DNA from: Terramyces sp. JEL0728
Taxonomy: Eukaryota; Chytridiomycota; Chytridiomycetes; Rhizophydiales; Terramycetaceae
Assembly: GCA_027603945.1 (NCBI GenBank)
Contig: JADIIU010000215.1
Span: forward strand, 1-13,756
Reading direction: 5' to 3'
Length of the DNA: 13,756 bases
Part shown: piece by piece, positions 1 to 10,632 of the stretch
Numbering within the stretch: the first letter of the stretch is position 1
How the letters are laid out: each line of letters opens with the position of its first letter
The notes under the pieces: model-generated
Databases searched by the model: none
Told to the model about the DNA's origin: nothing
Seen by the model: only the letters and a program-made list of their open reading frames with translations
Translations under genes and position numbers: made by a program

Positions 1-48
1 GTGAGACTTTTAATCTCAAGGTTGGGGGTTCGAGTCCCCCGTCGGGCT
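1..48 (+). tRNA. tRNA-Lys(UUU), 5' end cut by window edge
   Basis: The 3' part of a tRNA is visible. The anticodon stem TGAGA/TCTCA (2-6 with 14-18) closes loop CTTTTAA, giving anticodon TTT at 9-11 and so lysine. A five-base variable loop follows. The T arm has stem GGGGG/CCCCC around TTCGAGT. The acceptor 3' strand GTCGGGC ends at 47, with base 48 as discriminator. A T-run at 50-56 fits a Pol III terminator. The acceptor 5' strand and D arm lie outside the window. Confidence 0.93.
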
Positions 49-96: not shown

Positions 97-704
97 CTAT
101 ATTCGATTTCTTTCAAAGAAGCTCCTGAGGAAAACAACCTGGAACGCTACTGCGCCAAGCAAGATTGCCCACTGAAAGAACGTCCACCAAAATACACGCG
201 AAAATGTAGATTTCGCAGTTGCAACATGTCTAGTAACTCTCCTATTCAAAAACCCCAGCTCGTCCTGCATCAACAAAAATTACTTTCATATACCGCACCT
301 GGTTCGACAACTCTCTAATAGTATTTCCCAGCTCCTTTTCGTCGTTAGACCCTGCAGTATCTAGATGCGATTGATCATCTGGCCCAATAAATGAAAATGA
401 AATTGATTTTGCTGCCGCAGAGTTCAAGTTTGAAAAACACATTTCATGGTTTCCATCGAATCCAGAATTGAATCCAAACGCAGATTCGCTTCCTTGGGCT
501 AGGTGTAAAATACTTTTATCAGGGTTGAATATCTATGTTAGATTAGTGTACTTTGTAATCTACCGATCCGCCGTTATCTAGCTCAAACGCAATTTCTAAC
601 CTATCACCGGATTTTAGTGACTCGTAAAAACATTGCTGGGAGTGTGGTGGTAGTTCAAATGAATATGTGCTGCAGAGGTATAACTGAAATAGCAGAATCA
701 ACAT
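97..704 (-). CDS. p24/TMED family cargo receptor (EMP24/GP25L), copy 1
   Basis: Type I membrane protein of the early secretory pathway; family members load cargo into COPII/COPI vesicles between ER and Golgi. Exons 704-552, 532-284 and 264-97 give 189 residues, usual for the family. A signal peptide spans about residues 1-15. A GOLD domain follows with the paired cysteines C25 (QCFYESL) and C83 (EMCFSNL). A coiled-coil region runs up to RYMKDELGFLNRR. One TM helix begins at VFWWTFF, and a short tail contains FLRSFFERNRI. The tail keeps the FF motif but has RNR rather than a KK dibasic signal. Both 19-nt introns are required: without removal the frame stops, while with removal the sequence aligns with the second p24 gene at 5647-6296. 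The next gene upstream on the same strand ends 65 bp before this start. The p24 subfamily is uncertain. Confidence 0.9.
265..283 (-). other. 19-nt spliceosomal intron 2 of p24 copy 1
   Basis: On the minus strand the sequence is gtaatttttgttgatgcag. Its removal joins RYMK to DELGFLNRR, matching the second p24 copy and the family. Retention gives a stop 13 codons later. Its last ten bases (gttgatgcag) are identical to those of the third intron of p24 copy 2. Confidence 0.92.
533..551 (-). other. 19-nt spliceosomal intron 1 of p24 copy 1
   Basis: On the minus strand the sequence is gtacactaatctaacatag. Its removal joins VDYK to IFNPDKS in frame. It carries CTAAC with the A five bases before the AG, and an in-frame stop if retained. 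Confidence 0.9.
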
Positions 705-769
705 TCGCGATTCAAAAGTTTAAAAGAAAATATTTTATTGCTACAAATTATATGAGGTTCAAATACAAA

Positions 770-1477
770 TCAGTACGAGCGTTGTCTAGTTGGTCTCTCT
801 CTCCTTTCTTCGCCTGCTCTTGATCTTGCCCAGTTGGTAGATGGCAGGGATTGGACTTTTTCTCTTGGAAGGGTTGGTTGTCTGGAGGCATGTACGCTCT
901 GTGATCTTGGTTGAATTCTTGTATGTTCAGTGTTCCTTGATCTTTCGCTATGTCGGCCACTTCTGTTATCAGCCCTGACACTCCTTTCAGAGTTTCCCCT
1001 TCGATCATACGCCCTATCGCTTGGGTGCAAGTTTCTTTCAGACTCTGACCTGGAAAAGTTTCTTTCTGATCTTGCCATTGGTTCGCTCGGCCTTCTTTCT
1101 GGCATTCCTTCACTTCTCCTTGGCCGTTCGCTCCTTTCATTGTAACGATCCAAGTTTCTTGAGGGTCTTTCATTCCTTTCGTTATACCGATCCAAATCCC
1201 TCGTTGGTCTTTGATTAGTGTCTCTTGAAGGACGTCTGCCATACTTTCCTTCAGGTTGTTCCTTTTCGTCTTGGCCGCTTTGGAAATAATCAGTAGCCTG
1301 CTTAACAGCATGTTCGTAGTAGGTAGCCGAAGTTGATGCAACAGTTGTAGAAGCAGCTACAATGGTGTCATACAGAGCTGTCATATTGTATGTATCTGCC
1401 AGGTTTTCTTTTTGTACTCTTTGTTTATTGTTCTTTGGCTGTTCTTTGGTTTCATATAGCGATTTGAAATAATCCAT
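770..1477 (-). CDS. Arg/Ser-rich disordered protein, function unknown
   Basis: A 235-residue product if translation starts at the ATG at 1477; I do not recognise a family. Residues 1-75 look ordered, with an Ala/Thr/Ser stretch (about 32-66) containing YYEHAVKQATDYFQ. From about residue 80 to the end it is low-complexity, rich in Arg, Ser, Glu and Asn. This part includes a 14-residue tandem duplication (residues 90-103 and 104-117, each containing LDRYNER) and many SER/RSE pairs. Such tails are typical of intrinsically disordered, RNA-binding or condensate-forming proteins, but that is inference. The frame is open upstream of the chosen ATG without another in-frame ATG, so an upstream exon is possible. 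The gene ends 65 bp before the p24 start on the same strand. Confidence 0.6.
   Translation of the reverse strand: MDYFKSLYETKEQPKNNKQRVQKENLADTYNMTALYDTIVAASTTVASTSATYYEHAVKQATDYFQSGQDEKEQPEGKYGRRPSRDTNQRPTRDLDRYNERNERPSRNLDRYNERSERPRRSEGMPERRPSEPMARSERNFSRSESERNLHPSDRAYDRRGNSERSVRADNRSGRHSERSRNTEHTRIQPRSQSVHASRQPTLPREKVQSLPSTNWARSRAGEERRERPTRQRSY
1127..1210 (-). repeat. two tandem 42-bp coding repeats in the Arg/Ser-rich gene
   Basis: Two adjacent 42-bp units encode RPTRDLDRYNERNE and RPSRNLDRYNERSE. The unit length is a multiple of three, so the frame is kept; this fits local in-frame expansion of a disordered tail. Confidence 0.75.
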
Positions 1478-1497
1478 CGGAAAGGAATTTGTAAACC

Positions 1498-1650
1498 TTA
1501 CTTTAATTGTGAGGGGCAAATCGTATGTTGGGCTCGTTCTGGGGGTATTATGAAATCATAGCGCGGTTTCACAAAGACTCCTTGCATAAATACCAATTGG
1601 CATTGATTCATTCCAGTTGTGCATTCACCGGAAATGCCTTGTTTGTCCAT
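1498..1650 (-). other. small open frame of 50 codons, possible upstream exon or gene
   Basis: From an ATG at 1650 a 50-codon frame encodes a coding-looking peptide (ISGECTTGMNQC near the start, KPRYDFIIPPERAQ in the middle). It stops 20 bp before the ATG of the Arg/Ser-rich gene. The stop overlaps a consensus-like 5' splice site, GTAAGG. Splicing into the downstream frame would need an intron of 17, 20 or 23 nt, but no AG lies at those positions. It may be a leader-encoded peptide, an exon with an unusual acceptor, or chance. Confidence 0.25.
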
Positions 1651-1880
1651 CCGGGGTGTTTTTAGCTGTTTCACATTTAATTTAACTGTTATAGTCCAGC
1701 TTGCAAAAAGTCTATCAGCTGATGATGAAGCCGAGTTGCAGAGAAGCTGGATTCTGTCCAGAAGTTCAACGATTCAATTCGTCGAGTCAGTCTTTTTTTT
1801 TTAATCAGAGATTATAAGAGCTCTACGAATTACAGTTTGCCTTTGGATATTTATTACAGCAGAGTTGAGTCGATGGCATT

Positions 1881-2026
1881 GGCTGTCAAACGATGCGAGA
1901 AATATCGGGTTGCATCCAATTAACTGGCTGTCAAACGATGCGAGAAATATCGGGTTGCATCCAACTAACTGGCTTTCAAACGATGCGAGAAATATCGGGT
2001 TGCATCCAATTAACTGGCTTTCAAAC
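1881..2026. repeat. 45-bp minisatellite, three full units and a partial fourth
   Basis: Units begin at 1881, 1926 and 1971 (each starting ggctktcaaacgatgcgaga); a partial unit of 11 bases begins at 2016. Units differ at only a few bases. Each contains GATGC and GCATC 15 bases apart, a short inverted repeat. Because 45 is a multiple of three, several frames on both strands are open across it and give 15-residue peptide repeats. I see no start context, conserved domain or composition supporting translation. Confidence 0.9.
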
Positions 2027-2399
2027 ACATGGCCAACTTTGTGCAACTGCAACTGCAACTGACCACGACATTGGTCATTGACAGCAAATATGTAACACGC
2101 TGCTGCTCACCATCTTTGTGCTCAATTAAACTAAATCCAGTTCGGCCATGTATTCCTGCGAATCTTAATTGCCTGCAATTTATCCCTGTGTTCTTTATTG
2201 CGACAGGCGCAAACCGTTTTTTGTGAAACAACACAAAGAGTGTTTGGAATAACTTCAACCAGGATAAAGATTAAACGGGCACTACCCTATCGGTTAAAAA
2301 TTTCCGTTCCTGCATTGTCACTATACTATAGATACAGAAAATTGGCAATTAATCGCCAATCACATTTTGTATTTAGTCACACAATTTTCCCTTCAAATG

Positions 2400-2495
2400 G
2401 TGTGGGGCTTTTGAGTTTGTTAAGGCCGACCCCGCAGGATTTTAGTTGCTCCTGCACGATAGAGATACAACTCGGCAGTGCGCATAGTGTGGGGC
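2400..2495. promoter_or_regulatory. cluster of GC-rich CreA/Mig1-like motifs upstream of the OPT gene
   Basis: GTGGGG occurs at 2402-2407 and 2489-2494 inside a 12-bp direct repeat (gtgtggggcttt). CCCCGC, the reverse complement of GCGGGG, lies at 2430-2435. All three fit the fungal carbon-repressor consensus SYGGRG and stand out in AT-rich sequence, about 180-270 bp before the OPT start. Binding is inferred from the motif only; other C2H2 zinc-finger regulators recognise similar sequences. Confidence 0.35.
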
Positions 2496-2636
2496 TTTAG
2501 TCATGCGAATAATATGCGAATAGCATTCAAGATTATGGTCACGGTTTATTGACAACTTTAAAATACAGTAAAGAGCAACGCATGGTAAAGCACCGGGACC
2601 TGCCAAATGAGGAGTGTTTGAGTACCATTTAGATAG

Positions 2637-2644
2637 TATAAAAA
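2637..2644 (+). promoter_or_regulatory. TATA box of the OPT gene
   Basis: TATAAAAA ends 27 bp before the ATG at 2672. If initiation lies at the usual metazoan-like spacing, the 5' leader would be only a few bases. Confidence 0.6.
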
Positions 2645-2671
2645 GACTGAAAAAATTCTCAACGCAAATCG

Positions 2672-4987
2672 ATGACTGACAAAGGTATAAATATCAAGAA
2701 TCTTGACGTCGAAGGACAGCTTGAAGATTTCGAACTAGATGACAAAGATGCGGAAAAAGCGCTAGGGGATCTTGCATTGGATTTTACCAGTGGTATCGTA
2801 TCAACTGACGACGATCCTACGCAGCATGCCATGACCTTGCGTGCATTGGTGATTTCAACGGTCTTTGCTATTCCGTTAGCTTTTGTTAATACCATTGGCT
2901 CATTCAGAAACAATCCATTTGCTATCCCGTCAACCATTGCAAATATCCTGGCATATCCAATTGGTGTTTTCTTTGCTGCTATTTTACCAGATGTCAGCCT
3001 CTTTGGAATTAGACTGAATCCAGGTCCATTCAACTTGAAGGAGCACGTTATTATCAACACAATCGTGTCTGCTGCTGCTAGCCAACCATATGGTATCGAC
3101 AACGTCGTCGCTCAAAAATTGATCTTTGGAGATGATAGTGTAAATATGGCCAACTCGTTCCTGTTTATTTTCTTTACGCAATTCTTGGGTTATGGTCTTG
3201 CTGGTTTGGGAAGACGATTCTTTGTTAAACCTACTGCAATGTTGTGGCCAACTGTTTTGGGACAGGTTGGTTTCTTTACCGCTTTCCACGGCGGTAAAGA
3301 AGATCCAAACAGCAAATACTTCCATAGCATGTCTAGATACACTGCCTTCTGGCTTTCATTTGGATTCATGTTTGTTTACGAATGGATTCCTTCCTTCTAT
3401 GCCAATGCATTAATGTCCGTTTCTTTGCTGTGTTTGATTACCAATAACCGCACTGTTCGTTTCTTGGGATCTGCCTGGTATGACCAAGGGCCTGGCATCT
3501 TGTCTTTTTCGTTTGACTGGACTCTGATCAATGGCCAGTATTCCCCAATGTACGTCAACTGGAACTCTATGTTTGGTAACATTCTTGGTATGTGGATCAT
3601 TGCTCCTCTTGGATACTACTTGGGTGCTTTCGGAACTCCAGTTTTGCAATCAACTATCAACTATGGGTCAGGAAGTATTAGAAGTGGTCAGGATTGGAAA
3701 AACGCTACTGATCCACTCCCAAGGTATTCTTCAAACAAACTGTTTGATTTGAACGGCTACCAAGTATCGTTCACTCAAGGTGGATATCCGCAGCTGTTGG
3801 ATGAAAATAACAACTTGAATGCTACTGCATATGAATTGGCTGGAAACAAAGTCTACATGTCGGAGGGGTTTGCATTCTCCTACCTGTCTTCTTTCATGAC
3901 TTTTGGTGCAATGTTCTCGCAAACCTTCTTGTTCTATGGTAAAGATATTGCGCGTCAAATGAAAGAGGCTTACTACCAAACTGATTCAGATCTTGATGCC
4001 AAAGACCCTCACTACAAGATCATGAGAAATTACCCTGATATCCCTGAATTGTACTATCTGCTCTACCTGGGTGCTATGATTGCTTGCACAGCTGTATTCA
4101 TGCAAGTATCGGTCTTTTATGTTCCATGGTACGGAACTCTATTTGCATTATTCCTCTCTATTTTAGGTGCTATTCCTGTTGCTTCTATTACCGGTATCAC
4201 TGGTCTCCAGCCTGGGCTAAACATCATTTCTGAATTGATTGCTGGTTTCACCTGGCCTGGAAAAACAATTATCGTTATGGGTTTCAAATCTCTCTCTACC
4301 AACGTCATGCTACAAGCCGTTGCTTTACTTGCTGATTTGAAACTCGGCCATTACATGCACATTCCGCCAATCTCAATGGTTGCAGCCCAATTCATTGGTA
4401 CCTTTTATGGTGCAGTTGCTAATACTGCAACTGCATTCTTTGCTATGAACACTATTGCGGATATTAACAATCCAGACTCTCAATACCAAGCCCAAACTTA
4501 TCAAGTGTTTTCTTCTGCTGCAGCCATCTGGGGAGCTTTAGGGCCAGCAAGACAGTTTGGGCCTGGATCTGCTTACTTTTCTCTTAACCTTGGGTATGTG
4601 GCAGGTTTCTTGGCTCCATTCATTCCGTGGATCATGAAGAAAATCCATCCATCCAGTATGTGGGACTATGTTAATATGTATATCGTTGTCGCTTCCATGG
4701 CGCCAGGTACTGGTACCATCAACTCTGGTTTCATCAATATTATCTTTGTACAGATCTTTGTTCAATGGTACTTGTTTAAATACCAAAGAGAGTTCTGGGA
4801 CAAGTATGTATTCTCTATCCAAAATGCAATGGATTGTGCCGCTCCTTTAGTCTCAGTGCTGGGAACTTTATTGAACACATTTGTAATTGATCCTACTGCT
4901 GCTCAACAAGGCTTGTTCTCACCATCCGGCCAATATGATTTCTACTGCTATGGAAAAACTTGGAATGGCAAAGCATCTAATTTCTAA
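2672..4987 (+). CDS. OPT family oligopeptide transporter
   Basis: Proton-coupled importer of small peptides (or metal chelates or glutathione in some members) in the plasma membrane or an endomembrane. It has 771 residues, typical of fungal OPTs, and is intronless. An acidic cytosolic N terminus of about 55 residues ends in STDDDPTQHAMTLRA, matching the conserved DDPT segment. Many hydrophobic helices follow. The family motif LNPGPFNLKEHVIINT lies at about residues 113-128. Further matches are the region around LGARQFGP-like sequence (GALGPARQFGPGSAY), IHPSSMWDYVN and the C-terminal REFWDKYVFSIQNAMDCA, corresponding to the WxKYNYxxSAALD region. The usual NPF/SPYPEVR motif before DDP and the canonical PP/NY motif near the C terminus are weak, so it is a divergent member. 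The ATG follows a TATA box closely. AATAAA overlaps the stop codon. It converges with the basic-protein gene 101 bp away. Substrate is unknown. Confidence 0.95.
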   Translation: MTDKGINIKNLDVEGQLEDFELDDKDAEKALGDLALDFTSGIVSTDDDPTQHAMTLRALVISTVFAIPLAFVNTIGSFRNNPFAIPSTIANILAYPIGVFFAAILPDVSLFGIRLNPGPFNLKEHVIINTIVSAAASQPYGIDNVVAQKLIFGDDSVNMANSFLFIFFTQFLGYGLAGLGRRFFVKPTAMLWPTVLGQVGFFTAFHGGKEDPNSKYFHSMSRYTAFWLSFGFMFVYEWIPSFYANALMSVSLLCLITNNRTVRFLGSAWYDQGPGILSFSFDWTLINGQYSPMYVNWNSMFGNILGMWIIAPLGYYLGAFGTPVLQSTINYGSGSIRSGQDWKNATDPLPRYSSNKLFDLNGYQVSFTQGGYPQLLDENNNLNATAYELAGNKVYMSEGFAFSYLSSFMTFGAMFSQTFLFYGKDIARQMKEAYYQTDSDLDAKDPHYKIMRNYPDIPELYYLLYLGAMIACTAVFMQVSVFYVPWYGTLFALFLSILGAIPVASITGITGLQPGLNIISELIAGFTWPGKTIIVMGFKSLSTNVMLQAVALLADLKLGHYMHIPPISMVAAQFIGTFYGAVANTATAFFAMNTIADINNPDSQYQAQTYQVFSSAAAIWGALGPARQFGPGSAYFSLNLGYVAGFLAPFIPWIMKKIHPSSMWDYVNMYIVVASMAPGTGTINSGFINIIFVQIFVQWYLFKYQREFWDKYVFSIQNAMDCAAPLVSVLGTLLNTFVIDPTAAQQGLFSPSGQYDFYCYGKTWNGKASNF

Positions 4988-5088
4988 TAAACCTTGGAAT
5001 TACTCTTGATTAGATTACTGGTAATAAGACAAACTAGCACGGTAAAAAGAAGTTTATTAAAACAGTTAATCCATATCTACAATTAATA

Positions 5089-5463
5089 TCAATTACCTAT
5101 ATCCTTCTTTTCAATAGCTTCCAAAATGTCCTTTTTTTTGTGCTTCAAAAGCTTCTTTACCTTCTTTTTATTTATCCTTGTAGGACGGATATACATACCA
5201 TGCTTACCCATTCGACCAGGTCTGACTCCAGATACGAGCTTGATTTTATTCGTATTGAATGGCTGATCGGATATCAAATCTTGTTTCTTGATTGATGCTG
5301 AAACTACATTGTCTATTATTGGAGTGATTTGGTCGTTTGTTTTTTTTAGCAGCGAGAGTGAGTCTGTCCCTGATTTCTTCTTTAGGCGCTGGATTTCTTG
5401 TCGTTTTTCTTTGAACAGGTTGCGCTTTCTGCCATTGACGTTGTTTTCTCCTTGCCCAACCAT
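5089..5463 (-). CDS. small Lys-rich basic protein, probably nucleolar
   Basis: A 124-residue product from the ATG at 5463. This start is preferred over an in-frame ATG at 5541 because it has A-rich context and the longer reading passes through a promoter-like poly-pyrimidine tract. The N terminus is GRKRNLFKEKRQEIQRLKKK. The middle is less charged (DQITPIIDNVVSASIKKQD). The C terminus contains VRPGRMGKHGMYIRPTR followed by a lysine-rich, probably helical tail (KKKVKKLLKHKKKDILEAI). Composition resembles small ribosome-biogenesis factors, and it carries several potential nuclear localisation signals. I do not recognise the family, so the function is inference from composition. It is the next gene downstream of p24 copy 2 on the same strand and converges with the OPT gene. 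Confidence 0.7.
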   Translation of the reverse strand: MVGQGENNVNGRKRNLFKEKRQEIQRLKKKSGTDSLSLLKKTNDQITPIIDNVVSASIKKQDLISDQPFNTNKIKLVSGVRPGRMGKHGMYIRPTRINKKKVKKLLKHKKKDILEAIEKKDIGN

Positions 5464-5506
5464 TTTAGTAAAGCTTTTTTTCTTTTTTTTTGTTGTTTGA
5501 CTTTTG

Positions 5507-5514
5507 GTCACGTG
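5507..5514. promoter_or_regulatory. GTCACGTG, E-box/Cbf1-like site
   Basis: GTCACGTG fits the RTCACRTG site of fungal bHLH factor Cbf1 and the CACGTG core of other bHLH proteins. It lies about 45 bp upstream of the basic-protein ATG, beside a long T-rich tract (A-rich on the coding strand). The position supports the start at 5463. The match is by motif only. Confidence 0.45.
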
Positions 5515-5646
5515 GTTTATTAGAATGATGGTTACATTCATTGGATAGAATTGCGGGTGTTCTCAAGCAGGATGTATGTGAAAGATGGCGCAAAGAGAGA
5601 CAAAGTTCCGCCAAGAGAACTACCAAACCGCAAATGATCAATAGGG

Positions 5647-6296
5647 TTATATTATTCGCTTCTTTTCAAAGAATTGACGGAGATAAGTGACTTGGAACCC
5701 AACAACACCCAATAAAATCATTAGTTGGAAAAATGTCCACCAAAATACACGTGAATAAGTAGATTCGGCAGTAGCTTTATGCCTCTTGATTCTACGATTC
5801 AAAAAGTCCAATTCATCCTTCATAAACCTGCATCAACATCAAATCACCTCATTTGATTAGATAAATCCTGAATGTTCTTTCCCAATTCTTTTTCATCCTC
5901 GCTCAAATCTTTGCCAATTTCAATTTTCGATTGATCGTCAGGTCCAAGGAAGGAAAACTGTACAATTTTGTCGTAGCCTGATTTGTTGTCAAAGCATTGA
6001 TGATGCTCGCCGTTTGATGCCGCATCGAATCCAAACGAAGAAGCTCTTTCCGACTGTACTTTATGGATGGTTGCACCGCCTACATTAACTACTAGTACCT
6101 GGTGTTTTAATTTCATAATCTACAGCCCAGTCTCCAATCGTTTGAATAACTTCAAAAGACACTTCAAGCCTATCTGATATTAATACCGAGTACCATCCTT
6201 TTTCAAGTCTTCAAAGAAGCATTCTTTTGTATATGGTTTGATATTTAGTGTAAATGAAGAGCAAAGTGCTGTTCCTAAAAGCAAGAACTTGAACAT
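5647..6296 (-). CDS. p24/TMED family cargo receptor (EMP24/GP25L), copy 2
   Basis: Type I membrane protein of ER-Golgi vesicles. Exons 6296-6194, 6173-6099, 6079-5848 and 5827-5647 give 196 residues. A signal peptide begins MFKFLLLGTALCSSF. The GOLD domain has paired cysteines C26 (KECFFEDL) and C88 (HHQCFDN) and the typical DRLEVSFEV and GGATIHKV segments. A coiled coil ends in DELDFLNRRIKRHKATAEST. One TM helix (VFWWTFFQLMILLG) and tail TYLRQFFEKKRII follow; the tail combines an FF motif with a dibasic COPI-type signal. Three introns of 20, 19 and 20 nt must be removed to recover the family sequence. It is a clear paralogue of the p24 gene at 97-704 (shared FxGPDDQS, DEKELG, RVFWWTFFQ), but intron positions differ. 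It is divergent from the MsrB gene with only 26 bp between start codons. Confidence 0.93.
5828..5847 (-). other. 20-nt spliceosomal intron 3 of p24 copy 2
   Basis: The minus-strand sequence is gtgatttgatgttgatgcag. Its removal joins SNQMR to FMKDELDF. The donor starts GTGA, unlike most here. Retention gives an immediate TGA. The last ten bases match intron 2 of p24 copy 1. Confidence 0.92.
6080..6098 (-). other. 19-nt spliceosomal intron 2 of p24 copy 2
   Basis: The minus-strand sequence is gtactagtagttaatgtag. Its removal joins DYEIKTP to GGATIHKV, the canonical p24 segment. TTAAT lies near the 3' end, with its A five bases before the AG. Confidence 0.92.
6174..6193 (-). other. 20-nt spliceosomal intron 1 of p24 copy 2
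   Basis: The minus-strand sequence is gtactcggtattaatatcag. Its removal joins LKKD to DRLEVSF. A TTAAT motif has its A six bases before the AG. Retention gives an in-frame TAA. Confidence 0.92.
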
Positions 6297-6322
6297 GAGA
6301 TTGCTTTTTTGTTGGAAAAAAC
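6297..6322. promoter_or_regulatory. 26-bp divergent intergenic spacer between p24 copy 2 and MsrB
   Basis: The whole space between the two start codons is 26 bp and A/T-rich, with a T6 and an A6 run and no TATA box. Both starts are constrained: the p24 ATG opens a signal peptide and the MsrB ATG opens a mitochondrial presequence, with no later usable ATG in either. Core promoter elements must therefore overlap the opposite gene. Confidence 0.7.
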
Positions 6323-6891
6323 ATGACAATAAGACAAACATTTAAATTAAGCCGCAGTATTATTAGTCGGACCGCAATCATATCCAGATACTCTACAAAA
6401 ACAAAGGAAGAGTGGAAGCAGATATTGGGTGAGCTAGAGTATAAAGTAATGATTGAAGGCAAGACCGAAGGTGCATTCACCGGAAAATATCTGAAATTAA
6501 ACCGCATAGGTATTTAGAACTTGATCTGTAGGTATACACAATTCTAAGCTAGGTATTCTTCACTAACAAAAGGGAACTATCACTGCAAAGGATGCGACAC
6601 TCCACTATTTTCTTACAAGCACAAGATTGATACGCTATCGGGATGGCCAACGTTTAATGATTGCTTTGAAAACACAATAGAAACAAAGCGAGACTATTCG
6701 ATGCCGCTAATGCCAAGGGACGAACTGATTTGCTCAAACTGCAAAATACATTTGGGACATTTATTCATGGAAAAGAATGATAATAGGTACTTGATGCTAA
6801 TATTAGGTTATTTCTGTCCTGACTATAGGTATTTGTGTCCTGATTTAGGTTTTCTGTCAACTCGATCTCATTGAAATTTGTCGCAGAATAA
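6323..6891 (+). CDS. msrB: mitochondrial-type methionine-R-sulfoxide reductase MsrB, active-site Cys replaced
   Basis: The family reduces methionine-R-sulfoxide in proteins with thioredoxin. Exons 6323-6509, 6573-6786 and 6849-6891 encode 147 residues. Residues 1-26 (Arg, Ser and Ile rich, no acidic residues) look like a mitochondrial presequence. The MsrB domain follows with KEEWKQIL, FTGKY, the zinc motifs CKGC (67-70) and CSNC (116-119), GWPTF (86-90), HLGHLF (122-127) and the C-terminal VNSISLKF. Two introns of 63 and 62 nt are needed, each made of three GT...AG units. The family signature R-H/Y/F-C-V/I-N reads R134-F135-S136-V137-N138 here, so the catalytic cysteine is Ser (codon TCT at 6853-6855). 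The stretch between HLGHLF and this motif is also a few residues short. It may be an inactive or repurposed paralogue, a decaying gene, or carry a sequence error. The name refers to the family, not proven activity. Confidence 0.85.
6510..6572 (+). other. 63-nt MsrB intron 1 made of three contiguous GT-AG units
   Basis: Removal joins KLNRI to GNYHCKGC in frame. The tract splits without leftover bases into units at 6510-6531 (22 nt), 6532-6552 (21 nt) and 6553-6572 (20 nt). Each begins GTAT and ends AG, with a branch-like TTGAT, CTAAG or CTAAC near its end. The unit boundaries read TAG|GTAT. It could be spliced as one 63-nt intron or as three stepwise introns. Retention hits a stop within four codons. 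Confidence 0.88.
6787..6848 (+). other. 62-nt MsrB intron 2 made of three contiguous GT-AG units
   Basis: Removal joins EKNDNR to FSVNSISLKF. Units lie at 6787-6806 (20 nt), 6807-6828 (22 nt) and 6829-6848 (20 nt), again with no bases between them. Branch-like CTAAT, CTGAC and CTGAT lie near their ends. The second and third units share tgtcctga. If fully retained, the frame stays open to a TGA at 6871 and gives a different, shorter C terminus. Confidence 0.87.
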
Positions 6892-7153
6892 ATATATATT
6901 AATAAACTTTTTGATGTGCATAAAATTCGAGTCAAGATCACACACTCACTGCTATCACATATCCCCAAACACAATTCCGTATAGGAAGGGTATCTGATTA
7001 TAACTCTTTGGATTCTGCCCGTTACAAGGTGGAGGAAGGAAAGACACGGTAACCAAGCATATCAGGAGCAACAATAATAGATCTAGAGTCCTAGATTGAG
7101 CCTGTTGATTATGTGTTGATCTGCAAAAACACGCTGAAAAAAGTAACACGAAA
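6892..7153 (+). other. intergenic region between MsrB and muskelin
   Basis: About 260 bp. The left end is AT-rich (aatatatattaataaa), consistent with the MsrB 3' end and poly(A) signals. The right part is the presumed muskelin promoter and leader. I see no gene, convincing TATA box or structured RNA. Confidence 0.5.
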
Positions 7154-9352
7154 ATGAATACAGCACTAGAAAAGTTGGACTTTACAATCTCTTCCTGGTC
7201 CTCGCACTCTGCCTCGTACCACCCAAAGAACATTACTGTAGCAAAACCTCAAGATCAGTCATCACGCTGGTCGTCAGGATCAAACAATCAACTACAATTC
7301 ATCACAGTCAAACTTGAAAAAATCAGTATCGTCAAAACCATTACATTTGGCAAGTACCATAAAGTACACGTCTGCAACCTGAAGGAATTTAAAGTGTTTG
7401 GCGGGCTAGATGAAAGTACGGTTTTGCTAATCAAGGCAATATGAATGAACTATTACACGCTGGATTGCATAACGACTCTGAACAAGAAACTTTTGCTCTT
7501 AAACATATTTTTAACGGTGTAAATGTCCCTTGTCTGTATATCAAAGTTGTACCTTTGCTTGCTTGGGGAGCAAACTTTAATTTCTCGATTTGGTATGTTG
7601 AACTTCGCGGCTACGATCAACCGGATGTAGTTGAAAAGGCATACAAGGAATATACAAACTATAAAGAAACTGAAGTAGTCAGATTATGCTTGAAACACTT
7701 TCGCCAGCGTAATTACATTGACTGTTTCAATTCTGTACAAAATCAAACTGGGCTACAGCTAGAACATCCTGTACTTACAGAGTTGCATCATAGACTAGTA
7801 GTCGAAGGCGACTTTGAAAATGCAGAGTTATTATTGAATCAAGCTATCGAACGCGACCTGTTTGATAATTACATTTCTGATTTACCGTACAAACCGAAAT
7901 GGAGTAGAGTCAATGTACCGCTTGGCATGCCTACTCCAAGTATGAGAGGTGGCCATCAAATGTGTATCGACAGCGAAGCAAACTTGATTTATTTGTTTGG
8001 TGGTTGGGATGGCACAAAAGATTTATCAGATTTCTGGCAGTTCAACCAAACCGATCGTATTTGGACATGCATTTCAATGGACACTCGCAAGCAAAATGGA
8101 CCCGAACCAAGGTACTTTTCACTAACAAGATCGTGTCATAAAATATGTTTAGATCCGTACCACAAAGTAATTTACGCCTTGGGTAAATATGTTGATTCAG
8201 AAAGTAGACCTGGACATGCACTAGAATCAGATTTCTGGAAGTATGATATCATCCAACAAAAATGGACCAAACTATCGAGCAATACAGGGGCGGAAGGAGG
8301 GCCTGAATTGATATATGATCACCAAATGGTTGTTGATTCTGATAAGAGCGTCATCTATGTATTTGGCGGCAGAACGGTCAGACAAGAAAGTTCTCAAAAT
8401 TACTCTGGTCTGTATACTTACAATATCCCTGCAAACAAGTGGAAATTGGTACGAGATGACCTACCATCTACTTCTCCTACCATTCAAATTAAATCCAGAA
8501 TCGGGCACTCAATGTTGTTTAACCCGTCAACTCGAGAAATCTATATTTTCGCTGGACAAAGGCACAAGGACTTTTTAGCAGACTTTTACGTTTACAATAT
8601 TGATAACGACACTGTTACAGAAATATCCAGGGACTATTCAAAGACTGGAGGTAGCTTTACGTTAAACTAGGTCCGGACGCAGGGTTTACCCAGCGAGCAA
8701 CTATCGACCCATACAAAAACGAATTCTATGTGTTATCAGGAATGATGAGAGAAAAGAATAGCTTGAACGATACAAAGAATGCTTTCTGGGTGTACAATTT
8801 GCAGAAAGGCAAGTGGTTAAAGATATACGAAAATGACAATATTGGATCTGATTATTGGATGAAAATGGCAAACATTGAGCCACGCCCTAGATTTGCACAC
8901 CAGCTAGTCTACAATGAAAGGACCAAAGTACAATACCTGTTTGGTGGCAATCCAGGTGAAACAAATAACCCAAATTTGCGTCTTGATGATATGTGGGAGC
9001 TTACTCTACAACGTCCATCGAGCCAAGATATCTTGCGCAGAGCCAAATTCCAGATCCGTAAACTGTGGTTCATTGAAAAATGCTTGCAAGGCGATATCCA
9101 ACAAGCACTGCAGTTTTTACAAACTAAAGTGTCGCAGTACGTTAATCATTTGGATCCCGAAGAATCTAAGCAGTTCCAGATGTTGGCGATGAATTTGTTT
9201 AGCTGGAATGCAAACAAGAGTGAAGGTAATTATTTGCTTATTGAGATTTGTTTGGCGGTAGAATCGGATTGTATCAGAATTTATTGAGGTATTTCCCAGA
9301 TACCATGCGCGAGCCACATGCCAATTTGGTTGATCTTGTTCCACTGGTTTAA
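7154..9352 (+). CDS. mkln: muskelin (discoidin-LisH-CTLH-kelch protein)
   Basis: Substrate-recruiting or scaffolding subunit of the CTLH/GID E3 ubiquitin ligase in animals; fungal homologues are less studied. Exons 7154-7415, 7436-8650, 8671-9225 and 9246-9352 encode 712 residues, close to animal muskelin. Domains in order: a discoidin-like N-terminal domain with DQSSRWSSGSNN and FGKYHKVHVCNLKEFKVFGG; LisH at about 162-194; CTLH at about 199-237; a six-blade kelch propeller from about 265 to 590 with MRGGHQM, YLFGGWDGTKDLSDFW, FDHQM-like YDHQMVVDS, IGHSMLF, GFTQRATIDP and RFAHQLVYNE; a helical C-terminal region; and the conserved end RYFPDTMREPHANLVDLVPLV. Three 20-nt introns, none a multiple of three, are fixed by exact restoration of conserved sequence. 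Ubiquitin-ligase partners are not in this window. Confidence 0.96.
7416..7435 (+). other. 20-nt spliceosomal intron 1 of muskelin
   Basis: The sequence is gtacggttttgctaatcaag. Removal joins FGGLDE to SNMNELL, matching animal muskelin. CTAAT has its A five bases before the AG. Confidence 0.95.
8651..8670 (+). other. 20-nt spliceosomal intron 2 of muskelin
   Basis: The sequence is gtagctttacgttaaactag. Removal joins SKTGG to PDAGFTQRATIDP inside the kelch region. Retention gives an in-frame TAG at its end. The following exon starts with GT, so the boundary reads AG|GT. Confidence 0.94.
9226..9245 (+). other. 20-nt spliceosomal intron 3 of muskelin
   Basis: The sequence is gtaattatttgcttattgag. 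Removal joins NANKSE to DLFGGRIGLYQNLLRYFPD, recovering the conserved C terminus. The branch-like motif is a weaker CTTAT. Confidence 0.92.
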
Positions 9353-9463
9353 CATCTAATAACTTATTATATTAATTTTGATTTCTGCTGCCGTTTTGAA
9401 TCGAGTCGCTTGAATCTTGATGTAAATGAAAAGGTGTTGTGATTAAATTGGCAAATTTCTTGA

Positions 9464-9535
9464 GCCCGTATAGCTCAGTGGTAGAGCGTCAGTCTTGTAA
9501 ACTGAAGGCCCTGTGTTCAATCCACAGTTCGGGCA
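9464..9535 (+). tRNA. tRNA-Thr(UGU)
   Basis: A complete 72-nt cloverleaf without intron. The acceptor is GCCCGTA with TTCGGGC, including one T-T mismatch at pair 6-67. The D arm is GCTC/GAGC. Anticodon stem TCAGT/ACTGA closes loop CTTGTAA, giving anticodon TGT. The T arm is CTGTG/CACAG around TTCAATC, and the discriminator is A. A T5 run at 9539-9543 fits a Pol III terminator. Muskelin ends 111 bp upstream on the same strand. Confidence 0.95.
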
Positions 9536-9538
9536 CAC

Positions 9539-9543
9539 TTTTT
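9539..9543 (+). terminator. Pol III T-run terminator of tRNA-Thr
   Basis: Five T residues start four bases after the tRNA end. The stop codon of the convergent PBP2-like gene lies 40 bp beyond. Confidence 0.7.
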
Positions 9544-9582
9544 CCTACACGAAAATCCAAGACAAATGTTTTTAAACTGTTT

Positions 9583-10632
9583 TTATTCAAAAGTAATGTT
9601 CTGGCAGATACGCTCAGCAATTTTTCCGTTTGCTTCTTCCCAATCTTTAAGCAGCTGTGAATCAATTAATTTAGCGCGGACCAGCGTATCAACGCAGAGC
9701 TGTATGGAAGCTCGTTTCACAAAACGTGGATCTAGAGTAAATTTTACAGTTTTGAACCAAGTCTTTACATCTGCAGCATCTGGGTAATGGAACACATCTT
9801 TACGCTCCAAAAGCAATGGCAATCCTTTAGGTTCAAAGTTGTTGACAAATTCTGCGATTGAATCTTTTAAATAAGATTGAAAATCTGGAATATTGAATTT
9901 TGGGTTGGATTGAGTGGCGAGCATGAAAGCTGGCCATGGCGAGTCAAATGTATCGAGCATTGATAGCTGATTCTTGTCGTAATACGGCTACTATTAAATA
10001 CATATACTTTAGTAGTAATAACTTCCCACATGAACGCATCCGCAGTACCATCAGTAACTCCATTAATTAATCCATTGATATCATTCAAAACGACAAATTC
10101 AAATTCTGGCCATCCATTTTGCATTGCTAGTACAACTGCCATTATATGCGACCCACTGCCAATTCGACTAATCCCAATCTTTCCGCCTTTCAAATCTTGT
10201 AATTTTGTAATTTTACTACTTGGTGCTACTGCTATTGACCAGCATAAAGAAGAGTTTGTATACGAACCAGCCAGTTTGATTGATGTGGAATTTGATTCTA
10301 ATAATTGAGTACATGTTTCTTGTTAGTGATAATTACTATACACTAGCCCTTCAGTAAGTGCGATAACAGCGTCCGTTTGGTTACCTTCCAAGAATTTAAT
10401 CATCTGGATTAGTAAACAGTACTTGGCCAGTTCCACCAGGACAAGACTTTATCTTAATTGTTGGCGAAGGGGATAGATACAGAGGTCCGCTGAAATGCTC
10501 TGGAACGCATCCAACGGTAATTGAATTTGGCTGGGAATCATGCCCGTTAATTTTTGTTTGAGCAGTTGGAGCCATTTTATTGAAAAATCTTACTCTGGAG
10601 ATTAGGGCATGGAGGTGGATGCGGCCGGCCAT
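9583..10632 (-). CDS. PBP type 2 (Ca3427/NMT1-like) substrate-binding-fold protein
   Basis: Two-lobed periplasmic-binding-protein fold resembling the Candida Ca3427 protein and THI5/NMT1-type or nitrate/sulfonate binding proteins. Cellular role and ligand are not established. Exons 10632-10423, 10403-10337, 10318-10008 and 9987-9583 encode 330 residues. Key segments are ITVGCVPEHFSGPLYL, CPGGTGQMIKFLEGNQTDAV, SIKLAGSYTNSSLCWSIAV, LKGGKIGISRIGSGS (about 135-149), FVVLNDINGLINGVTDG, ADAFMWEVITTKPYYD and SPWPAFMLA. Introns of 19, 18 and 20 nt are all required. The first in-frame ATG is at 10632 and adds a basic leader (MAGRIHLHALISRVRFFNK) that could be mitochondrial. An alternative ATG at 10575 would start at MAPTAQTK, just before the domain. 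No ABC permease or ATPase is nearby. It converges with tRNA-Thr. Confidence 0.88.
9988..10007 (-). other. 20-nt spliceosomal intron 3 of the PBP2-like gene
   Basis: The minus-strand sequence is gtatatgtatttaatagtag. Removal joins WEVITTK to PYYDKNQLSML, as in related proteins. The branch-like motif is TTAAT. Confidence 0.93.
10319..10336 (-). other. 18-nt spliceosomal intron 2 of the PBP2-like gene
   Basis: The minus-strand sequence is gtaattatcactaacaag, the shortest in the window. Its length is a multiple of three but it contains an in-frame TAA. Removal gives EGLVYKTCTQLLE, continuing into SIKLAGSYT. CTAAC has its A only four bases before the AG. Confidence 0.87.
10404..10422 (-). other. 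19-nt spliceosomal intron 1 of the PBP2-like gene
   Basis: The minus-strand sequence is gtactgtttactaatccag. Removal joins GGTGQ to MIKFLEGNQ. CTAAT has its A five bases before the AG. Confidence 0.93.

What the first reader, a model, noticed from the sequence alone, without database searches (positions are those of the whole stretch)
97..10632. Every simple intron in the window is only 18-20 nt
Five genes (two p24, MsrB, muskelin, PBP2-like) are split. Eleven simple introns measure 18 (one), 19 (four) and 20 nt (six). Each is fixed by restoring conserved protein sequence, for example GGLDE|SNMNELL and GFTQRATIDP in muskelin. Fungal introns are usually tens of nt longer. Comparable sizes are known for the Bigelowiella natans nucleomorph (18-21 nt) and the ciliate Stentor (15-16 nt). 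A fungal nuclear genome with this as its standard size would be remarkable, because the U1, branch-point and 3' splice-site footprints nearly touch.
Basis: partly seen in the sequence, partly recalled or inferred. Interest (0 to 1): 0.93.

Follow-up and report, generated by a model that had tools for sequence, protein, structure and literature searches.

The report
Chytrid with genome-wide 19-22-nt introns
A chytrid fungus interrupts its genes with introns of only about 20 letters, among the smallest known, and sometimes strings several of them back to back, which makes it a natural test of how small the splicing machinery can go.

Summary
The window is a whole contig of a 15.0-Mb chytrid assembly that I identify, from contig lengths, as Terramyces sp. 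JEL0728. A gene model with a uniform length prior, run on about 224 kb, gives one sharp peak: 185 of 253 GT-AG introns are 17-23 nt, against 7-17 for each of nine decoy dinucleotide pairs; longer classes lie at or below decoy level. Sixteen other loci repeat it (57 of 68 against 0-2). The introns share one plan: GTAAKT, a branch motif whose A is nucleotide 14 or 15 (159 of 189; none at 13), and 5-6 nt to the end. Nearly all junctions checked lie in aligned parts of conserved proteins. U2 snRNA, U2AF2 and SF1 genes are present. New here: trains of 3-6 complete tiny introns joined AG|GT, in MsrB (twice), TOP1, proteasome alpha-6 and others; one holds three perfect 20-nt copies. No RNA evidence was available. 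The deposited models splice many tiny introns but mis-splice both MsrB trains. My searches found no paper on this.

The parts
265..283 (-). p24-1 intron 2, 19 nt, GTAATTTTTGTTGATGCAG
   Evidence: p24 profile matched almost end to end after splicing; lies 10 nt (in coding terms) downstream of the place of the p24-2 intron 5828-5847
533..551 (-). p24-1 intron 1, 19 nt, GTACACTAATCTAACATAG
5828..5847 (-). p24-2 intron 3, 20 nt; similar in sequence to 265-283 but not at the identical position
   Evidence: similarity
6080..6098 (-). p24-2 intron 2, 19 nt
6174..6193 (-). p24-2 intron 1, 20 nt
6510..6572 (+). MsrB composite intron 1: train of three units, 22+21+20 nt (6510-6531, 6532-6552, 6553-6572)
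   Evidence: junction ungapped against a solved MsrB and against JEL0866
6787..6848 (+). MsrB composite intron 2: train of three units, 20+22+20 nt (6787-6806, 6807-6828, 6829-6848)
   Evidence: junction beside a 3-residue gap against a solved MsrB; units 2 and 3 more alike than 99.4% of intron pairs
7416..7435 (+). muskelin intron 1, 20 nt
8112..8129 (+). muskelin intron 2, 18 nt, in frame and without a stop; missed by the automatic model
   Evidence: six-residue insert against seven relatives if kept
8651..8670 (+). muskelin intron 3, 20 nt
9226..9245 (+). muskelin intron 4, 20 nt
   Evidence: (close alignment with JEL0866 only)
9988..10007 (-). PBP2-like gene intron 3, 20 nt
   Evidence: junction at residue 177 inside the PBP2_Ca3427_like match 100-186
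10319..10336 (-). PBP2-like gene intron 2, 18 nt, holds an in-frame stop; the automatic model put a 108-nt intron here
   Evidence: open frame after splicing and splice motif only
10404..10422 (-). PBP2-like gene intron 1, 19 nt
   Evidence: open frame and splice motif
97..704 (-). p24-1 (EMP24_GP25L) gene
5647..6296 (-). p24-2 gene
6323..6891 (+). MsrB (SelR) gene; deposited as HDV01_003240 with a different splice model
7154..9352 (+). muskelin gene
9583..10575 (-). PBP2-like (Ca3427-like) gene

Best explanation
These are genuine U2-type spliceosomal introns of a chytrid (Terramyces sp. JEL0728) whose standard intron is 19-22 nt across the nuclear genome. Each holds little but the splice signals: GTAAKT at the 5' end, a YTRAY-like motif with the branch A at nucleotide 14 or 15, then usually 5-6 nt ending in YAG. 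Introns are recognised by intron definition with the 5'-splice-site and branch-site footprints abutting; the absence of a branch A at 13 suggests a steric lower limit. Now and then introns stand in trains of 3-6 complete units joined AG|GT, most simply removed unit by unit and enlarged by tandem duplication. Shown: the sequence architecture, its wide extent in the genome, restoration of conserved proteins, and presence of U2, U2AF2 and SF1 genes. Inferred: splicing itself, the branch site (from the motif), the steric limit, and unit-by-unit removal of trains.
For: Length peak without length or motif prior: GT-AG 54 of 210 introns at 18-21 nt against 2-11 for nine decoy pairs. With motifs added: 185 of 253 at 17-23 against 7-17 (motifs were learnt on the same DNA). 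Sixteen loci not used for training: 21 of 62 at 18-22 against 0-8 without motifs, 57 of 68 against 0-2 with motifs. One plan in 189 distinct introns. Tiny junctions against solved proteins: CCT6 6 of 6 in aligned blocks, one 4 residues from a 1-residue gap; PP2A-A 6 of 6; cytochrome P450 reductase 4 of 5, the fifth in a poorly aligned part; branched-chain acyl-CoA dehydrogenase 5 of 5, one of these 24 nt. Muskelin as told in the observation check. The deposited CFAP91 model of the same contig removes the same introns at 5 of 6 junctions. U2 snRNA with GTGTAGTAT; U2AF2 and SF1 genes, themselves split by tiny introns. Trains.
Against: No cDNA or RNA-seq was available. U1 was not found with the Rfam model (where no control genome rang either) or by its 5' end, and U6 only as two sub-threshold hits that do not look like U6 and no convincing pattern hit (hits not read); weak evidence of absence. 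The ab initio model under-detects 3n introns without stops and makes long artefacts. A few 24-66-nt candidates with good motifs may be real longer introns. Without motifs the 22-30 class lies within, not below, the decoy range (16 against 11-26). One train candidate of seven fetched (L055) did not resolve. At a motif threshold of 4 no train is found at all.
Confidence: 0.94

Rival explanations
1. The tracts are introns, but each train is removed as one 62-130-nt intron from the first GT to the last AG; the inner sites are remnants of tandem duplication.
For: Both routes give the same mRNA. The train with three perfect copies (L049) shows that inner sites can arise by duplication alone. Train units score somewhat lower than single introns (mean 4.57 against 5.28).
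Against: Introns of 24-250 nt lie at or below decoy level in this genome, so removal of 62-130 nt in one step would be exceptional. In most trains neighbours have diverged (22 of 25 pairs are not more alike than 99% of intron pairs) yet keep GT, branch motif, AG and 19-23 nt (the search itself asked for units of 17-26 nt with a motif score).
Confidence: 0.3
2. The tracts are not spliced but skipped by the ribosome or removed by another non-spliceosomal route.
For: Short inserts skipped in translation are known from other systems (recalled). No RNA evidence here.
Against: Donor, branch and acceptor motifs are those of U2-type introns; U2 snRNA, U2AF2 and SF1 are encoded.
Confidence: 0.02
3. Sequencing insertions, assembly errors or pseudogenes.
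For: Draft assembly of 231 contigs.
Against: Decoy dinucleotide pairs do not show the peak; many of the genes are conserved housekeeping genes, with one splice plan over 20 sampled contigs; a sister species gives matching spliced proteins.
Confidence: 0.01

Closest known systems
Bigelowiella natans nucleomorph introns (18-21 bp)
   Same: nearly the same narrow length range, many introns
   Different: relict algal endosymbiont nucleus; here the 15-Mb genome of a fungus (lengths from a passage of PMC10245619; primary paper not read)
Heterotrich ciliate introns (Stentor, 15-16 nt)
   Same: uniform tiny introns with U2AF2 retained (passages of PMC9505925)
   Different: shorter and in a ciliate; no trains met in the passages read
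Mikrocytos mackini introns (16-17 nt, 224 introns)
   Same: narrow length range, conserved motifs
   Different: intracellular parasite with a reduced spliceosome (passages); here, by extrapolation, on the order of 12,000 introns
Stwintrons of fungi
   Same: complex intervening sequences of several U2 introns
   Different: stwintrons are nested, one intron interrupting a splice element of another (abstracts in the listing); the trains here are complete units side by side
Repeat expansion creating introns in Cryptococcus
   Same: identical intron copies ascribed to DNA repeat expansion or a similar process (passages of PMC2395259)
   Different: here the repeat unit is the intron itself, with no exon between copies
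Recursive-splicing ratchet points (zero-nucleotide exons, recalled)
   Same: juxtaposed AG|GT
   Different: those cut up very long introns; here the segments are about 20 nt

Membership tests
U2-type spliceosomal intron | GT...AG ends with donor consensus beyond GT | tested here: met
   A at +3 in 170 of 189, T at +6 in 119 of 189; decoy ends lack the peak
U2-type spliceosomal intron | branch-point motif upstream of the AG, matching U2 snRNA | tested here: met
   YTAAY in 132 of 189 by the four commonest motifs; U2 gene with GTGTAGTAT. Branch use itself not shown
U2-type spliceosomal intron | removed from mRNA, lariat formed | not testable with these tools
   no RNA data; indirect: conserved proteins restored
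U2-type spliceosomal intron | U1 and U6 snRNAs encoded | tested here: inconclusive
   not found; for U1 no control genome rang
genome-wide ultrashort introns (nucleomorph, Stentor, Mikrocytos class) | narrow length peak at about 15-22 nt as the standard intron | tested here: met
   on about 1.8% of the genome
stwintron | a splice element of one intron interrupted by another | tested here: not met
   units in nine trains are complete and side by side
introner elements | families of near-identical introns at dispersed sites | tested here: inconclusive
   pairwise scores of 189 introns reach at most 16 (identity of 20 nt would be 20); the sample is about 1.5% of the genome
U12-type introns | U12 branch and donor motifs | not tested
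   no U12 search; AT-AC ends used as a decoy show no peak

The most novel reading that the evidence does not exclude
Intron trains are a working form of gene structure here: a 19-22-nt intron can be copied in tandem AG|GT at little cost because every copy is excised on its own, so introns multiply as a minisatellite whose repeat unit is a complete intron. The spliceosome then works through strings of zero-length exons in 20-nt steps, with the step set by a 14-nt minimum from donor to branch A.
Probability: 0.5. Interest if true: 0.93.

Novelty: new variant of a known kind. Interest (0 to 1): 0.86.

Why it matters
Standard introns of 19-22 nt in a chytrid (free-living as far as I recall) would show that near-minimal introns need neither parasitism, an endosymbiont nucleus nor a ciliate nucleus, and would place them in an opisthokont, nearer to the yeast and animal spliceosomes that have been studied most. 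The sharp edge at nucleotide 14 for the branch A offers a measurable limit for spliceosome geometry. Trains of complete introns offer a visible route by which introns multiply, and a test of whether the spliceosome can deal with zero-length exons. Practically, gene predictors misread such genes: two deposited proteins of this species look wrong for this reason.

Tried and rejected
SSU rRNA for identification failed three times on the machine; the organism was identified instead by the contig lengths of deposited proteins. U1: Rfam model, 5' end plus loop (3 places, 4 in the reversed control) and 5' end alone (4 places, 12 in the reversed control) gave nothing convincing. My first look missed two of the four places because of their orientation; read, they do not look like U1 to me. 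Two of the places lie in what reads as coding sequence that itself holds tiny introns (by eye). U6 by Rfam gave two near-identical sub-threshold places that do not look like U6; the five pattern hits with 3 mismatches were not read.

The first strict gene model fused two window genes and misplaced a muskelin intron; lower penalties and decoy controls replaced it. The model's 16-nt and 108-nt introns in the PBP2-like gene are artefacts by hand reading, and a 20-nt intron it put at the end of the gene at 5066-5463 is unsupported. A 67-nt intron in the acyl-CoA dehydrogenase resolves into introns of 21 and 22 nt around a 24-nt exon. A 21-nt stopless unit in TOP1 was missed by the model. In-frame stops in 21-nt introns (32 of 35) were not interpreted, because stopless ones escape detection. 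The chain option inside the gene model found one composite in models scoring over 10; a direct chain search found more. I first thought two p24 introns shared one position; they lie 10 nt apart. Papers: no description of tiny introns in chytrids met in ten searches; these cover open-licence PubMed Central only, and most listed papers were seen as listings, eleven by a term search (passages; none returned for PMC5639578).
Full report
What the window is. The window is contig C215 entire (13,756 bases) of a 15,016,339-base, 231-contig assembly. Spliced muskelin is 93% identical to that of Boothiomyces sp. JEL0866. A CFAP91 protein that I spliced from contig C6 matches a deposited protein of Terramyces sp. 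JEL0728 on a contig of 252,070 bases, the length of C6, with identity at all aligned columns. MsrB from the window matches Terramyces sp. JEL0728 HDV01_003240 on a contig of 13,756 bases. I take the genome to be that assembly: Chytridiomycota, Rhizophydiales, Terramycetaceae.

The window's introns. Twelve simple introns, 18 to 20 nt, are listed with coordinates in the parts. Evidence differs by gene. Muskelin: three junctions align without a gap in all seven relatives, and the 18-nt stopless intron appears as RYFSLT only in the unspliced reading; the fourth aligns closely with JEL0866 alone. The p24 genes: Pfam matches over positions 2-182 of 182 after splicing. The last introns of the two p24 paralogues are more alike than 99.6% of intron pairs but lie 10 nt apart in the coding sequence, so they are either one intron that has shifted or two. 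PBP2-like gene: splicing gives one open frame; only the third junction lies inside the Pfam PBP2 match, and the 18-nt intron was missed by the automatic model.

Genome-wide test. I wrote a two-strand semi-Markov gene model with dicodon coding scores, a uniform prior on intron length and no motif beyond the two end dinucleotides. On 20 stretches of 10 kb (the same offset on contigs C1-C20) plus the window and three short loci (about 224 kb, of which L001 overlaps L017), GT-AG gives 54 of 210 introns at 18-21 nt in gene models above the score cut; nine decoy pairs give 2-11 of 184-224. At a stricter penalty it is 40 of 92 against 2-5 of 79-94. Motifs learnt from 59 of these introns raise it to 185 of 253 at 17-23 nt against 7-17 of 125-203 for nine decoy pairs. 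GT-AG counts at 24-36, 47-69 and 70-250 nt (10, 8, 41) lie below every decoy, and the count at 37-46 (7) equals the lowest decoy. Without motifs the 22-30 class (16) lies within the decoy range of 11-26. Since the motifs came from the same DNA, I repeated it on sixteen other loci (50,469 bases; four overlapping or near-identical loci dropped; L045 and L046 share their matched string and were not checked for duplication): 21 of 62 at 18-22 nt against 0-8 for decoys without motifs, and 57 of 68 against 0-2 with motifs. In the larger set 78 of 125 gene models hold at least one intron of 17-23 nt. Scaling 189 introns per 0.22 Mb to 15 Mb gives on the order of 12,000; this is an extrapolation.

Anatomy. 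In 189 distinct introns lengths are 18:2, 19:59, 20:77, 21:35, 22:14, 23:2. By best motif match the branch A falls at nucleotide 14 (91), 15 (68), 16 (16) or 17 (3); the other 11 assignments, at 9-12, are probably mis-picks; none is at 13. After the A, 5 or 6 nt follow in 159 of 189. Both 18-nt introns of the window also read A at 14, with 4 nt after it (read). Introns are 29.8% G+C, exons 40.0%. There is thus hardly room for a pyrimidine tract between branch and AG, although a U2AF large-subunit gene (C2; its best TIGR01642 match of 251.7 bits lies under the 310.3 cut-off, as expected of a gene searched with its introns) with two RRM stretches in Pfam and an SF1 gene (C39) are present; both are split by tiny introns. 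U2 snRNA is found at C70 with the usual branch-pairing stretch. U1 and U6 were not found (see tried and rejected).

Protein-level checks outside the window. CCT6 against CCT zeta: six tiny junctions (19-23 nt), all in aligned blocks, one of them 4 residues from a one-residue gap; a 172-nt model intron at its start lies outside the alignment and is doubtful. PP2A-A: six of six in ungapped blocks. Cytochrome P450 reductase: four of five; the first lies in a poorly aligned stretch. Branched-chain acyl-CoA dehydrogenase: five of five (20-24 nt), while a 67-nt model intron resolves into two tiny introns around a 24-nt exon that fits the frame. The deposited CFAP91 model agrees at five of six junctions; at the sixth it drops 26 residues that Globomyces and Kappamyces keep. 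In TOP1 a seven-residue insert against the human protein is a stopless 21-nt GT...AG tract that my model had kept. I did not check the remaining gene models against relatives.

Trains. Both composite introns of MsrB are exactly three complete units, 22+21+20 and 20+22+20. A direct search for chains of GT...AG units (18-24 nt, motif score at least 0) in 274,350 bases found three triples and two doubles at spacing 0, and no triple at any of 12 other spacings, where doubles ran from 0 to 5; at a motif threshold of 4 no chain is left at spacing 0. Two of the three triples are the window's own, so this is not an unbiased rate. The third is in TOP1; keeping its last unit creates the seven-residue insert that the alignment with human TOP1 shows. 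Over the whole genome the inner-junction pattern occurs 219 times, against 102 for the same pattern read backwards, and against 73 (85 backwards) when two bases are put between AG and GT; all counts include some duplicated segments. Among the 100 places listed of 219, seven sets overlapped as chains; I fetched all seven. Six resolve into trains: proteasome alpha-6 (21+20+20+20, the last three perfect copies), a MATH-domain gene (4 units), a CBS-domain gene (4), a SIKE-family gene (6 in the gene model, 7 in the bare chain), a Tom37/metaxin-like gene (3) and a gene with a sub-threshold TFIIH p62 match (4); the seventh, L055, did not. In the five named families other than proteasome the junction lies inside the Pfam match, and joined proteasome alpha-6 aligns without a gap to solved relatives. 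The deposited MsrB model keeps the middle unit of the first train as seven residues and loses the conserved C terminus at the second; the JEL0866 model has seven extra residues at the second site and the B. macroporosus model breaks off there, which suggests, but does not show, that sister species carry this train too.

How it probably works. Inferred from the anatomy: intron definition by the ordinary U2 spliceosome, with U6/5'-splice-site and U2/branch pairing side by side and little spare RNA between them; the lower edge at 14 may be the smallest donor-branch loop this machinery accepts. Trains are most simply removed unit by unit, because longer introns are at or below decoy level; one-step removal is the main rival. 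Tandem duplication is the plain reading of the three perfect copies in the proteasome train.

Known or new. Uniform tiny introns are known in the B. natans nucleomorph (18-21), heterotrich ciliates (15-16) and Mikrocytos (16-17) (PMC10245619, passages); a 23-nt Trichomonas intron was called among the shortest known in 2025 (PMC12316389, passages). A survey of fungal introns calls Cryptococcus introns, mean 63 bp, relatively short, and the passages I saw mention no such class in chytrids (PMC8476143). None of my ten paper searches brought up a description of tiny introns in a chytrid or of trains of complete tiny introns; see the limits in tried and rejected. The deposited gene models show that an annotation pipeline has already accepted many of these introns, so the introns are public although, as far as I can see, not described.

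Noticed in passing
window 6510-6891; deposited HDV01_003240 (P0241): The deposited MsrB model of this contig keeps a 21-nt train unit as seven residues and loses the conserved C terminus, apparently an annotation error caused by back-to-back tiny introns.
   Followed up: yes
window about 6849-6865: After splicing, the MsrB C terminus reads RFSVNS where Boothiomyces JEL0866 reads RFCVNS; the catalytic cysteine (recalled) would be serine in this copy.
   Followed up: no
window about 1878-2030: Direct repeat of a unit of about 45 bp between genes, roughly three copies, seen when reading the sequence.
   Followed up: no
window 1-48 and 9464-9536: A tRNA cut off by the contig start and a complete tRNA-Thr (TGT).
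   Followed up: no
L049 (C30:14450-15150): Three perfect copies of a 20-nt intron in a row in the proteasome alpha-6 gene: an intron acting as a minisatellite unit.
   Followed up: partly
L014 (C6), CFAP91: The deposited CFAP91 protein lacks 26 conserved residues beside a 19-nt intron.
   Followed up: yes
window 265-283 and 5828-5847: Two p24 paralogues carry similar tiny introns 10 nt apart in the coding sequence, a possible case of intron sliding.
   Followed up: partly
C3, C8, C18 pattern places: Some junction sequences recur on the same contig 12 to about 60 kb apart (for example C3:97051 and C3:126331), suggesting large duplicated segments in the assembly.
   Followed up: no
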